From positions 62,001 through 126,000 of the forward strand of contig DASZZN010000018.1 in assembly GCA_035544955.1 (NCBI GenBank): a stretch of DNA of 64,000 nt. Direction: 5' to 3'. Under the pieces are notes generated by a model. It was not told the origin of the DNA. It saw nothing but the letters and a program-made list of their open reading frames with translations, and did no database searches. Positions 2,535 through 54,393 of this stretch are shown one piece after another. Position numbers and translations under genes: made by a program. This stretch comes from Candidatus Dormiibacterota bacterium. Its GTDB lineage: Bacteria; Chloroflexota; Dormibacteria; CF-121. Within the stretch, counting starts at the first letter, position 1. The number at the start of each line of letters is the position of its first letter.

Positions 2535-3812
2535 ATGCCACGCGGCTACGCGCGATACGTGCTCGGCGTCATGGTCGGCATCAATTTCCTCAATTACCTC
2601 GACCGCTATATCCTGCCGGCGGTCGCAACCAGGATCCAGGCCGAGTTCCACCTCACCGATAGTCAGGTTGGCCTGCTGGGCAGCGCCTTCCTCCTCGTCT
2701 ACGCGGTCGCCACGATTCCCTTTGGTATCTGGGCCGACCGGGGCGTGCGTAAGACGGTGGTCGGCATCGGCGTCACGATCTGGAGCCTGGCCACGCTCTT
2801 CACCGGCCTGGCCCGCAGCTATCTTCAGCTGTTTGTGGCTCGCGCGGTGTTGGGAATCGGGGAAGCGAGCTACTACCCGGCAGGCACCGCGTTGCTCGGG
2901 GACTACTTCAAGAAAGACGGACGAGCACGCGCCATGTCCGTCTGGGCGGCGGGAACCGCGGTTGGCATCGCCGTCGGTTTTGCCGGCGGCGGGATCGTCG
3001 CCAGCACGCTCGGTTGGCGAGCCGCGTTTTACATGACCGCCGTTCCGGGCCTGGTCTTCGCCGTCCTGGCCTTCGGGCTCCGCGAGCCGATGCGGGGCGC
3101 TGCCGAGCCGCGGGGCCCGCAGACCCAGAAGCCACCGCCGATCACCCTCACCACATTCGTCCGGCTCCTGCAGATCCCGACGTTACGCTCCACCATCGCG
3201 GCCGAGACCGCGCTCTTCTTCGTACTGGGGGGTGCCGCGTTCTGGCTCCCGACCTATCTGAGCCGACGCTTCGGCCTGGGAACCGCAAGCGCCGGGACGC
3301 TGGCGGGTGGCGTCCTCGTGCTCGGCCTGCTCGCCGGTTCGCTTCTCGGTGGGGTGATCGCCGACCGGCTGACGAAGGCGCGACAATCGGCCAGCAACCT
3401 GCCAGTCGGGATCGCGGGCTTCCTTGCCGGCGCCGTGTTCGTCGCCCTGGCGCTGCTGATGCCGAACCTGGCGCTGTTCATCCCGATGTTCCTCCTGGGT
3501 GCAGCGTGCCTCTACCTCTATAACGGCCCGTACACCGCGATCAAACAGAACGTCGTGCTACCGACCGTGCGAGCAAGCGCCGTGACGATCTCGCTTCTGA
3601 TCGAACATCTTCTTGGAGATTCCTACGCACCTTTCGCCATTGGCAAGCTGTCCGACGCGCTTAACAGCCTGCAGCTGGCGCTGCTCATCCTGCTGCCGCC
3701 ACTGCTGGTAATCGCGGCTGTCTTTGCCGCGATGGGCCTCCGACATGAAGACCTAGACGGTCGCGCGATGGAAACCCAGTGGGCAGCGAGCAGTGTCGGA
3801 GCCGAGCCATAG
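2535..3812 (+). CDS. MFS transporter, spinster/hexuronate-like
   Basis: A 425-residue major facilitator superfamily permease with about 12 hydrophobic segments. Visible family features: NFLNYLDRYILPA in TM1, the cytoplasmic loop 2-3 motif GIWADRGVRK, GIGEASYYPAG in TM4, and the second half beginning near residue 220 with repeated loop GGVIADRLTK. This pattern is typical of the spinster-like and anion:cation symporter branches that take up organic acids or lipids. The ATG at 2535 sits 8 nt after a CATAAT -10 element, so the mRNA is probably leaderless. It is divergent from a small cupin and may import that cupin's substrate. The exact cargo is unknown. Confidence 0.85.
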   Translation: MPRGYARYVLGVMVGINFLNYLDRYILPAVATRIQAEFHLTDSQVGLLGSAFLLVYAVATIPFGIWADRGVRKTVVGIGVTIWSLATLFTGLARSYLQLFVARAVLGIGEASYYPAGTALLGDYFKKDGRARAMSVWAAGTAVGIAVGFAGGGIVASTLGWRAAFYMTAVPGLVFAVLAFGLREPMRGAAEPRGPQTQKPPPITLTTFVRLLQIPTLRSTIAAETALFFVLGGAAFWLPTYLSRRFGLGTASAGTLAGGVLVLGLLAGSLLGGVIADRLTKARQSASNLPVGIAGFLAGAVFVALALLMPNLALFIPMFLLGAACLYLYNGPYTAIKQNVVLPTVRASAVTISLLIEHLLGDSYAPFAIGKLSDALNSLQLALLILLPPLLVIAAVFAAMGLRHEDLDGRAMETQWAASSVGAEP

Positions 3813-3822
3813 GGGTGGGTTG

Positions 3823-4239
3823 ATGCCATCGAAGCTTGGCGCCCGCGCGCTACTCATGCCGAGCAGGACGGTCCTGGTTGAGGGCTCCAGGGCCGCGCTT
3901 AGGCAGCTAGCCGGATTGATCAGACCGAAGTCAGCAGTTACAGCTGCGCTAGATAGCCCGCCGTCCGACTCGCCACACGGCACCTGGCTGGCACTCGTGT
4001 CGATAGAGCCGGATGACAATTTCTTGTTGGTAACCACGAGAGGCGGTAGCGTGGTTTTCGCTGGAGATCAGCGCTCGCGCGACTTGTTAGCGCAGAACAT
4101 CGAGGCGTTCGCCGGCGAACTATACGATCCCACCGGTCATATGCACATCGAATACTTTCCGGAACATTCGTATATAAGACGTGGATCCGCTCCACTAGTT
4201 ATCGCACCGGGGGGCCGAATAACTACGAACGGTTCGTGA
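3823..4239 (+). CDS. Small soluble protein, possibly Imm32-like
   Basis: 138 residues counted from the ATG at 3823, which follows a GGGGTGG purine run. No membrane segment or signal peptide. The C-terminal part reads as alternating strand and helix (NFLLVTTRGGSVVFAGD, a helix near residues 85-97, then HMHIEYFPEHSYI and a closing hydrophobic strand), which resembles the Imm32-type polymorphic-toxin immunity fold. That resemblance is from memory and tentative. The base composition is visibly lower in GC than the neighbours, suggesting recent acquisition. No toxin gene is adjacent, so if it is an immunity protein it is an orphan. It lies 10 nt after the MFS stop. Confidence 0.45.
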   Translation: MPSKLGARALLMPSRTVLVEGSRAALRQLAGLIRPKSAVTAALDSPPSDSPHGTWLALVSIEPDDNFLLVTTRGGSVVFAGDQRSRDLLAQNIEAFAGELYDPTGHMHIEYFPEHSYIRRGSAPLVIAPGGRITTNGS

Positions 4240-5032: not shown

Positions 5033-5067
5033 GGGTGGCGGCGGCCGCTGACCCGAATTGCCCAACC

Positions 5068-5073
5068 GATAAT
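5068..5073 (+). promoter_or_regulatory. -10 element of the small membrane protein gene
   Basis: GATAAT ends 6 nt before the ATG at 5080, the same leaderless geometry as at other starts in this window. Confidence 0.5.
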
Positions 5074-5079
5074 GAGCGG

Positions 5080-5457
5080 ATGTCGCACAGCGCCCTGCTG
5101 ATCCTTCACAACGGCTTGTTTCGCGCCGGGCTCCTGATCACCGCCTTCATCGCCGTGTGGGGCCTCTTCACGTTTTTCCGCAAGCAGACGCCCCCTGGCA
5201 GCTTCCGGGCGACCCTGGTGCTGACCGAGCTTCTCTTCATCGTCCAGGGACTGGTCGGGATCGGGATGTTCGCCGGGGGGTCCCGTCCCAGTGACCAACT
5301 TCACTGGCTCTACGGCCCGTTGCTGGTGATCGTGTTCCCGGTCGGAGCGAGTTATCTCTCGGGGCGGGAGAGCCGTCGCGAGGGGCTCGTCTATGGCCTC
5401 GCCGCGCTCTTCATGTTCGGCTTGGCGATCCGTGCCTACATGACCGGGCATGTCTGA
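5080..5457 (+). CDS. Four-helix integral membrane protein, unknown
   Basis: 125 residues with four hydrophobic segments (near residues 12-30, 45-65, 72-88 and 102-118) and short charged loops (FFRKQTPPGS, SGRESRREG). No enzymatic motif and no cytochrome-type paired histidines that would justify a heme role are evident. The start ATG at 5080 lies 6 nt after GATAAT. The frame remains open upstream to 5035, but that extension is hydrophilic and antisense to the PIG-L promoter, so I reject it. It is followed by a bidirectional hairpin and the convergent microprotein gene. I do not recognise the family. Confidence 0.7.
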   Translation: MSHSALLILHNGLFRAGLLITAFIAVWGLFTFFRKQTPPGSFRATLVLTELLFIVQGLVGIGMFAGGSRPSDQLHWLYGPLLVIVFPVGASYLSGRESRREGLVYGLAALFMFGLAIRAYMTGHV

Positions 5458-5474: not shown

Positions 5475-5500
5475 GAGAGGGGCCCTTTCGGACCCCTCTC
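5475..5500 (-). terminator. Rho-independent terminator of the microprotein gene
   Basis: An 8-bp stem GAGAGGGG / CCCCTCTC with a 10-nt loop. On the minus strand it is followed by CGTTTTCTCC, giving a short T run. It begins 11 nt after the stop of the 19-codon gene. On the plus strand it also ends the membrane protein transcript, though without a good T run. Confidence 0.6.
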
Positions 5501-5511
5501 GTTACCGCTTG

Positions 5512-5571
5512 TTAGCGGCTCTTACGGGTCGCCTTCTTGGCCTTCTTCGTGGCCTTCTTCCTGGTCGCCAT
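5512..5571 (-). CDS. 19-residue lysine-rich basic microprotein
   Basis: Codons from ATG 5571 to TAA 5512 give MATRKKATKKAKKATRKSR, with 8 Lys and 3 Arg in 19 residues and no acidic, aromatic or large hydrophobic residue. The translation signal is as strong as possible: AAGGAGGTGA sits with 6 nt between GGAGG and ATG. A promoter-like TTGGAC/TATGCG pair lies about 50-75 nt upstream and an intrinsic terminator begins 11 nt downstream, so it looks like a self-contained transcription unit. The KKA/KKAT repeat resembles the tails of histone H1-like and AlgP-like bacterial proteins, suggesting nucleic-acid or ribosome binding (inference). No family is recognised. Confidence 0.65.
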   Translation of the reverse strand: MATRKKATKKAKKATRKSR

Positions 5572-5574
5572 GCG

Positions 5575-5584
5575 TCACCTCCTT
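5575..5584 (-). promoter_or_regulatory. Ideal Shine-Dalgarno of the microprotein
   Basis: AAGGAGGTGA on the minus strand is an extended anti-16S match. It decides that the 19-codon frame is a real gene in a genome where most neighbours have no ribosome binding site. Confidence 0.7.
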
Positions 5585-5618
5585 ATCGCGTGAGCGGCGA
5601 ACCGCGCACCGCGTTGTG

Positions 5619-5646
5619 CGCATACCGGAGATAACGCTTAGTCCAA
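5619..5646 (-). promoter_or_regulatory. Possible promoter of the microprotein
   Basis: TTGGAC (5646-5641) and TATGCG (5624-5619) with a 16-nt spacer on the minus strand would give a leader of about 40 nt before the ATG at 5571. Confidence 0.35.
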
Positions 5647-5677
5647 AACGATCTTGCAGATTCGAAATGCAGCCACG

Positions 5678-6661
5678 CTAAAAGAGGCGCAGTTGGTCGA
5701 CGGCGGCCAGAGGTTTCGCGCGCAACCCGCGCCGTCGCAGGTGCATCGCGAGCTCTTCGTCGAAACCCAGCACGGTGTACGTCATGCTCGCTCCGACCTG
5801 CTCCGCGTAACAACACAGTTCTTCGAAGTCCGCGTGGTCGGAGAGCGGGAAGACGGCGTCGACATCGAGGCGATCCTTGAGGCTTCGGTCCATGGCCCAG
5901 CCGGTCAGCGCCGCCGTTTTGAATTCACCAAGCTGGTCGGCAAGGGTAGCGCGGCGGGCGGATGGCGGCATGATCACCACTGCGGGTCGAGGTCCGGGCT
6001 CGCCCAGCTGTTGATATGGCGGGAAGTCACAACCGAGCTCTCGATACACTTCCGTCACGCTGAATGACGACGGGTGAAGAGCGATCGCCAGGTCGGCAGC
6101 GGCGAGCGCGGATAGGATTTCCTGTCCTTTCCCCAGGGAGTAACCAAGCAGTACGGGTGTCGCCCCGCCGTCGAGGACCGTCTTACACCATGAAACCATC
6201 GCCGCTATCACCTCGCCTGCGTCGGGGAAGCGGTAGTGGGGCTTGCCAAAGGTGCTTTCCAGGACCAGCACGTCGGCCGGAACAGGCTTCGCCGCCGTGC
6301 TGGTGAAGCCGCTCCGCGTCTTGAGGTCGCCGGTATAGAGGATGCGGCCGAAGTCGGTATCCACCAGCGTCTGCGCGGAGCCGAGGACGTGCCCGGCTGG
6401 GTAGAACGTGACGGCGCAGTGGTCGAGCGCGACGGACTCGCCATAGGGGATCGCCTCGACGCTGCCGCGGAGGGGCCGCCGCCGTCGGTGGGTGACGAGC
6501 CGGCGGGTTGCGGGTGTGGCGTAGGCGAGGGGGTGGTCGGCGACGTGGTCACTGTGGGCGTGGCTGATGATCGCTCGCGGTCGCGGCTGCCTCGGGTCGA
6601 GCCAGAGATGTTGCTCGGGGAGGTAGACGCCGCTCTCCCACAGGATGGGGTGCGAAATCAA
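5678..6661 (-). CDS. MBL-fold exonuclease, ligase-associated type
   Basis: 327 residues of the metallo-beta-lactamase superfamily with a beta-CASP-like arrangement, matching the 'ligase-associated DNA exonuclease' group related to CPSF/RNase J-type nucleases. Visible are HAHSDH at residues 34-39, GHVLGS near 93 (AGHVLGSAQ), the metal aspartate in YTGDLK near 111, VLESTFGKPHYRFP, and the late LSDHADF motif. It acts in the cytosol on nucleic acid. In many bacteria it is adjacent to an ATP-dependent DNA ligase; here the closest ligase gene is ligD at 60.5 kb and the neighbours are a zinc-ribbon protein (9 nt upstream) and a radical SAM protein. The ATG start is well supported by the conserved N-terminal strand. 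Confidence 0.85.
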   Translation of the reverse strand: MISHPILWESGVYLPEQHLWLDPRQPRPRAIISHAHSDHVADHPLAYATPATRRLVTHRRRRPLRGSVEAIPYGESVALDHCAVTFYPAGHVLGSAQTLVDTDFGRILYTGDLKTRSGFTSTAAKPVPADVLVLESTFGKPHYRFPDAGEVIAAMVSWCKTVLDGGATPVLLGYSLGKGQEILSALAAADLAIALHPSSFSVTEVYRELGCDFPPYQQLGEPGPRPAVVIMPPSARRATLADQLGEFKTAALTGWAMDRSLKDRLDVDAVFPLSDHADFEELCCYAEQVGASMTYTVLGFDEELAMHLRRRGLRAKPLAAVDQLRLF

Positions 6662-54383: not shown

Positions 54384-54393
54384 AAGGAGGTGA
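54384..54393 (+). promoter_or_regulatory. Ideal Shine-Dalgarno of the small membrane protein
   Basis: AAGGAGGTGA with 6 nt from GGAGG to the TTG at 54397, the same sequence and spacing as at the 19-residue microprotein. Confidence 0.65.

What the first reader, a model, noticed from the sequence alone, without database searches (positions are those of the whole stretch)
5512..5584. Lysine-rich 19-residue microprotein with ideal translation signals
Seen: a complete mini-gene below normal annotation limits, with AAGGAGGTGA, ATG, 11 Lys/Arg in 19 residues, a stop and an intrinsic terminator 11 nt later. Neighbouring genes mostly lack ribosome binding sites, so this looks made for high translation. 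Inference: a DNA-, RNA- or ribosome-binding peptide; no family recognised.
Basis: partly seen in the sequence, partly recalled or inferred. Interest (0 to 1): 0.65.

Follow-up and report, generated by a model that had tools for sequence, protein, structure and literature searches.

The report
Conserved stand-alone lysine-rich microprotein gene
A 19-residue, almost purely basic protein with its own strong translation start and terminator is a real gene, kept nearly unchanged in all 18 genomes of its bacterial family; look-alike unannotated mini-genes of 19-35 residues occur in more than 20 phyla, probably as tiny tail-like proteins that stick to DNA or RNA.

Summary
On the minus strand the window has AAGGAGGTGA (5584-5575), a 19-codon ORF (5571-5512, MATRKKATKKAKKATRKSR; 10 Lys/Arg, not 11) and an intrinsic terminator 11 nt after the stop. 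The 16S 3' end of this genome carries the matching anti-Shine-Dalgarno. No comparable ORF arose in 60 shuffles. The unit is present in all 18 genomes of its family. Its peptide is 95-100% identical while both flanking proteins fall to 53-89%. Codon changes are 8 synonymous to 2 conservative, one indel is exactly one codon, and the terminator stem shows compensatory changes. In one genome the unit lies inverted between the same two neighbours, so it is autonomous. The genus has a second such gene (MAAKKKAGGKKKAAKKSSKKK), seen in all 15 genomes. None tested matches Pfam or NCBIfam. Downstream genes are oriented almost at random, which argues against a lysine attenuator. Best explanation: a highly translated, disordered polycationic microprotein that binds nucleic acid, like a histone-H1 tail without a body. 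That it is a translated gene is near certain; the ligand (DNA, ribosome/RNA or polyphosphate) is inferred. Cross-phylum common descent is not shown.

The parts
5512..5571 (-). ORF of 19 codons plus TAA: MATRKKATKKAKKATRKSR
   Evidence: Sequence; conserved in 18/18 family genomes with 8 synonymous vs 2 nonsynonymous variant codons and one in-frame codon insertion in G013
5575..5584 (-). Shine-Dalgarno AAGGAGGTGA, complementary to the 16S 3' end of the same genome
   Evidence: invariant in the family alignment
5475..5500 (-). Intrinsic terminator, GAGAGGGGTCC-GAAA-GGGCCCCTCTC, followed by TCGTTTTC
   Evidence: compensatory changes in genus relatives, e.g. G-C to A-U in 6 of 16 at one pair
5504..5519 (-). 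Small hairpin across the stop codon (CCGCTAACAAGCGG), kept in the genus but not in two of the other family genera
5590..5609 (-). Conserved leader segment GTGCGCGGTTCGCCGCTCAC; can form its own hairpin or pair with the SD/start region
   Evidence: conserved, but without covariation, so the pairing is unproven
5630..5659 (-). Conserved promoter-like element CTGCAAGATCGTTTTGGACTAAGCGTTATC; two blocks about 17 bp apart, no strong sigma-70 match
   Evidence: conservation starts at CTGCAAG in the family; unique in the genome at 0 mismatches; no sigma-70 match
5678..6661 (-). Upstream neighbour, metallo-beta-lactamase-fold protein (context only)
   Evidence: PF12706, E 5e-5, below the curated cut-off; 63-89% identical in relatives
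5035..5457 (+). Convergent downstream neighbour, weak DUF998 match (context only)
   Evidence: E 4e-4, below the curated cut-off; 53-75% identical in relatives

Best explanation
It is an autonomous, strongly translated monocistronic microgene. It makes a 19-residue intrinsically disordered polycation (+10, no acidic residue, no large hydrophobic residue besides the start Met) that works as a free-standing histone-H1-like tail. By charge it coats or bridges polyanions, most likely chromosomal DNA and/or RNA or ribosomes, and so contributes to compaction or stabilisation. Shown: gene unit, selection on the frame, autonomy, paralogue, wide occurrence of look-alikes. Inferred: translation level, disorder, nucleic-acid binding, physiological role.
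For: Unit conserved in 18/18 family genomes. Synonymous-biased changes 8:2 against 23% expected, crude binomial P = 2e-4, and a one-codon insertion. Peptide 95-100% identical beside neighbours at 53-89%. Perfect SD to the genome's own 16S. Paralogue with SD and stem in all 15 genus genomes. Similar genes in another family of the class, up to two in tandem. 91 stand-alone Lys-rich ORFs of 19-35 aa in over 20 phyla, median 55% Lys/Arg. Some relatives continue the same repeat to about 100-130 aa (L081, L092, L107, L170), so they grade into H1-like repeat proteins. KPAA-repeat peptides of the H1-like AlgP bind DNA in vitro (PMC9239181). The only HU-family match in this genome has no Lys-rich tail.
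Against: No expression, ribosome-profiling or mass-spectrometry data. Low-complexity sequence cannot prove common descent or a specific ligand. Conservation also reaches silent positions of codons 2-7 and the leader, so part of the selection is on RNA. No sigma-70 promoter was recognised. Two of four families of the class show no such mini-gene with these patterns.
Confidence: 0.6

Rival explanations
1. A small ribosome-associated protein (in the manner of bTHX, bS22 or bL37): the peptide is a lineage-specific structural part or hibernation-time stabiliser of the ribosome.
For: Very strong SD, tiny and basic, near-invariant sequence in the family, single own transcription unit.
Against: Look-alikes are simple KKxxKK repeats of varying length and number, unlike a part that must fit one rRNA pocket; a look-alike peptide has no match among solved chains; sequence comparison cannot settle it.
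Confidence: 0.17
2. A lysine leader peptide: translation of Lys codons senses Lys-tRNA and controls the terminator, as in amino-acid operon attenuators.
For: Strong SD, short ORF rich in one residue and a terminator just after it is attenuator anatomy; a Thr/Lys-rich leader peptide has been proposed in Sinorhizobium (SEP5, PMC10117765).
Against: The next gene after the terminator is convergent here. Across the loci the downstream gene is co-directional in 45 and opposite in 63 (greedy ORF caller). Neighbours sampled in different phyla do not look like lysine genes (read by eye). Selection on amino acids such as Ala, Thr, Arg and Ser is not expected of a pure codon sensor.
Confidence: 0.05
3. 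Dual-function or regulatory RNA: the structured transcript is the main product and the peptide secondary, or translation is switched by the leader that can pair with the SD.
For: Transcript folds far better than shuffles (z -4.2); leader and SD region conserved at nearly every base; the paralogue has a leader of over 300 nt with near-invariant blocks.
Against: Synonymous-biased change and in-frame indels show the peptide is selected; no covariation supports the leader pairing; no Rfam family.
Confidence: 0.13
4. Chance ORF between two convergent genes, with no product.
For: Length is far below annotation limits.
Against: 0 in 60 shuffles, conserved in 18/18 genomes and moved as an inverted block in G016. 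A similar-looking ORF at G000:C5:20048 is not conserved in the genus, which shows the test can fail.
Confidence: 0.02

Closest known systems
Bacterial histone-H1-like Lys/Ala-rich repeat proteins and tails (AlgP and PhaF C-terminal KPAA domains; chlamydial Hc1; Lys-rich HU tails)
   Same: Lysine-rich low complexity with Ala, Thr, Ser, Pro spacers, no acidic residues; expected disorder and electrostatic DNA/polyanion binding
   Different: 19 residues, stand-alone, no globular or helical domain, one residue-level conserved sequence in the family, own strong SD and terminator; AlgP has a 154-residue repeat region behind a helical domain
Tiny basic ribosomal proteins (bTHX, bS22, bL37)
   Same: Size, charge, stand-alone gene
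   Different: No sequence match found in libraries or solved chains with the peptides tested; repeat-like, length-variable relatives. The comparison with these families rests on general knowledge
Amino-acid attenuator leader peptides (trpL, hisL, thrL type)
   Same: SD, short ORF rich in one residue, terminator close behind
   Different: No co-directional target gene behind the terminator; amino-acid sequence conserved beyond the lysines

Membership tests
Histone-H1-like Lys-rich proteins/tails | Lysine-rich (with Ala/Ser/Thr/Pro) low-complexity sequence without acidic or bulky hydrophobic residues | tested here: met
   10 of 19 residues K/R, rest A, T, S and start M; look-alikes median 55% K/R
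Histone-H1-like Lys-rich proteins/tails | Match to a curated family model (Pfam, NCBIfam) | tested here: not met
   0 families at E up to 10 for nine peptides; models are poor for 20-residue low-complexity queries
Histone-H1-like Lys-rich proteins/tails | Length of tens to hundreds of residues, usually attached to another domain | tested here: not met
   19 residues with own start and stop; longer repeat relatives exist elsewhere
Histone-H1-like Lys-rich proteins/tails | Binds DNA or another polyanion in the cell | not testable with these tools
   needs binding assay or ChIP
Small basic ribosomal proteins | Sequence similarity to a known ribosomal chain | tested here: not met
   0 PDB chains for a 22-residue look-alike; no NCBIfam model
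Small basic ribosomal proteins | Present in purified ribosomes | not testable with these tools
   needs proteomics or cryo-EM
Amino-acid attenuator leader peptide | Co-directional regulated gene behind the terminator | tested here: not met
   next gene is convergent; 45 co-directional vs 63 opposite over loci
Amino-acid attenuator leader peptide | Run of codons for the sensed amino acid | tested here: met
   7 Lys codons in 19

The most novel reading that the evidence does not exclude
An unannotated, nearly pan-bacterial (and sporadically archaeal) class of 19-35-residue lysine-repeat microproteins, made from dedicated strong-SD microgenes often carried in two or more copies, acts as a stand-alone minimal chromatin or ribonucleoprotein tail, a nucleoid component missed because it is below annotation limits.
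Probability: 0.35. Interest if true: 0.8.

Novelty: new variant of a known kind. Interest (0 to 1): 0.6.

Why it matters
Genes this short are skipped by annotation. A highly translated polycation kept in whole families and mirrored in more than 20 phyla would be an overlooked part of how bacteria, many of them uncultured, package nucleic acid or protect ribosomes. It would also give the smallest natural unit for asking what an H1-like tail does alone. It is directly testable: a peptide of about 20 residues can be synthesised and its gene deleted in a culturable host.

Tried and rejected
Rfam on the window and on ten loci: nothing credible. tRNA/tmRNA: none. Pfam and NCBIfam for nine peptides at E up to 10: none (the window peptide was padded to 20 residues for the length limit). 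PDB by sequence with one look-alike: none. sigma-70 promoter: none. Regulon search with the conserved upstream element: no other intact copy in the genome. Lysine attenuator: rejected on gene orientation and neighbours. Phage origin: 17 hits in viral contigs, only three of them stand-alone Lys-rich peptides of 21-25 aa (L203, L209, L213), so not a phage family. A third look-alike ORF in this genome (MAKKGGKKGYAKPKTTTKPKPKK, C5) is not conserved and was dropped. A stem between the Lys codons and CTTCT motifs after the stop: CTTCT in 20 of 78 representatives against 1 of 78 upstream, but the pairing test is weak (mean z -0.6), so left open. Ten literature searches found no description of such microproteins in the held open-access library; absence there is not proof of novelty.

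Full report
What is there. On the minus strand between a metallo-beta-lactamase-fold gene (6661-5678) and a convergent gene with a weak DUF998 match (5035-5457, plus strand) lies a complete transcription-translation unit. It has AAGGAGGTGA at 5584-5575, ATG at 5571, 19 codons (MATRKKATKKAKKATRKSR), TAA ending at 5512, and an 11-pair terminator stem at 5500-5475 with a T-rich tail. The 16S 3' end of this genome reads GGATCACCTCCTTT, so the SD can pair over 10 bases. Long ORFs in the window mostly lack such signals: 12 of 45 have at least 5 matching bases and 2 of 45 have at least 7. In 60 dinucleotide-preserving shuffles of the window no short SD-led ORF with at least 45% Lys/Arg appeared.

Is it a gene? 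The 121-bp unit was found in all 18 genomes of the family held. Eleven distinct coding sequences show 8 synonymous and 2 non-synonymous variant codons (Lys to Arg, Ser/Ala), against 23% synonymous expected for random single changes (crude binomial P = 2e-4, no tree correction). G013 carries one extra codon, exactly in frame. Flanking proteins drop to 63-89% (MBL) and 53-75% (DUF998 neighbour) identity while the peptide stays 95-100% identical apart from that insertion. The terminator stem is kept by compensatory changes (G-C to A-U in 6 of 16 sequences at one pair). In L018 (G016) the whole unit, from the conserved upstream element to the terminator, sits inverted between the same two neighbours. 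So it is autonomous and not a 3' part of the MBL transcript.

Who carries it. This is inference from equal lengths and identical peptides. Other members of the class are titled Dormibacterota.

A second gene and a wider class. Every one of the 15 genus genomes also has MAAKKKAGGKKKAAKKSSKKK or a one-codon-shorter form, with AAGGAGGTGA and a downstream GC-rich stem. Its leader of over 300 nt has near-invariant blocks. A second family of the class carries MAKKKAAKKPAKKAAKKSSKKK-type genes, some genomes with two in tandem. Ninety-one of these are Lys-rich ORFs of at most 36 residues (19-35), in over 20 named phyla including Bdellovibrionota, Myxococcota, Pseudomonadota, Eiseniibacteriota, Patescibacteria groups and archaeal Nanobdellota/Diapherotrites. 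The 90 nt after the stop fold much better than shuffles (mean z -3.0, 71% below -2, 78 representatives), as expected of terminators. The pattern itself demanded the start, the basic end and the SD, so these are not evidence about those features; the post-stop structure and the stand-alone repetition across phyla are. Low complexity means common descent across phyla is not shown, and the motif can arise repeatedly. Some relatives run on to about 100-130 residues of the same repeat (L081, L092, L107, L170), so there is a continuum with H1-like repeat proteins.

How it probably works. The peptide has +10 charge, no acidic residue and no hydrophobic side chain larger than alanine besides the start Met. 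It can have no hydrophobic core, no signal peptide and no membrane-active amphipathic face (sequence and general knowledge). The simplest mechanism is electrostatic binding of polyanions: DNA, RNA/ribosomes or polyphosphate. Precedent: KPAA-repeat peptides of the H1-like AlgP bind DNA in vitro, and its tail positions polyphosphate granules (PMC9239181). The one HU-family match in this genome lacks a Lys-rich tail, which fits, but does not prove, a tail supplied in trans. Strong SD and near-invariant initiation region suggest high output; that step is inferred.

Rivals. A ribosomal role cannot be excluded by sequence. A lysine attenuator is disfavoured: the gene behind the terminator is convergent here; over the loci 45 downstream genes are co-directional and 63 opposite by a simple ORF caller, and sampled neighbours differ from phylum to phylum. 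An RNA role alongside the peptide stays open: the transcript folds with z -4.2, and GCGTTATCTCC at 5637-5627 is complementary to GGAGGTGACGC around the SD, but if the upstream element is the promoter that stretch would not be transcribed, and no covariation supports the pairing.

Known or new. No Pfam or NCBIfam model matches nine such peptides, a look-alike has no PDB match by sequence, and ten full-text searches found no description. Works like: an H1-like tail. Membership: composition met, length/architecture and family model not met, binding not testable. I therefore rate it a new variant of a known kind.

Noticed in passing
L042:600-1570 (G000:C14): In this genome only, the second mini-gene's leader is tandemly duplicated; the first copy joins at a shared GATGGCCGCAAA stretch to a second copy of the C-terminal end of an upstream small zinc-finger ORF, with no mini-gene in between.
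   Followed up: partly
L028, L031, L035, L038, L042, L094, L099, L195 upstream of the second mini-gene: A leader of over 300 nt with near-invariant blocks (TTGCTTCCGGTACCCGG...GGCGGCGGCG) and no Rfam match; it looks like a structured RNA or a regulated 5' UTR.
   Followed up: partly
L217-L223: Other genomes of the family also encode a 150-166-residue Lys/Arg/Thr/Ser-rich protein (STAKR repeats, in most with a conserved PSYGGFGSE-like end), a longer basic protein of similar style.
   Followed up: no
window 5627-5637 and 5571-5585: GCGTTATCTCC is perfectly complementary (with G-U) to GGAGGTGACGC covering the SD; could sequester the SD if transcription starts upstream of it.
   Followed up: partly
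L020-L022, L047-L054, L080, L093, L168, L175, L183 just after the stop: CTTCT occurs within 25 nt after the stop in 20 of 78 representatives versus 1 of 78 in an upstream control stretch; it could pair with the AAGAAG lysine codons.
   Followed up: partly
window 54384-54393 (+): The only other AAGGAGGTGA in the window precedes a TTG-started ORF of a small hydrophobic protein (KADINFSNILVAIVLLLLGLAVFTRHRIASYVVGGFLMVLAAISILAFLKIL...).
   Followed up: no
L228 (G000:C15): Divergent HU-family protein (MAKTQKWTASTFVSLVHENLTDKGHKVKKSDLSWAVKDAF...), the only PF00216 match found in this genome, without a Lys-rich tail.
   Followed up: partly
window 3793-4239 (+): ORF matching Imm32 (immunity protein 32) at E 1.2e-12, next to MFS and PIG-L genes.
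   Followed up: no
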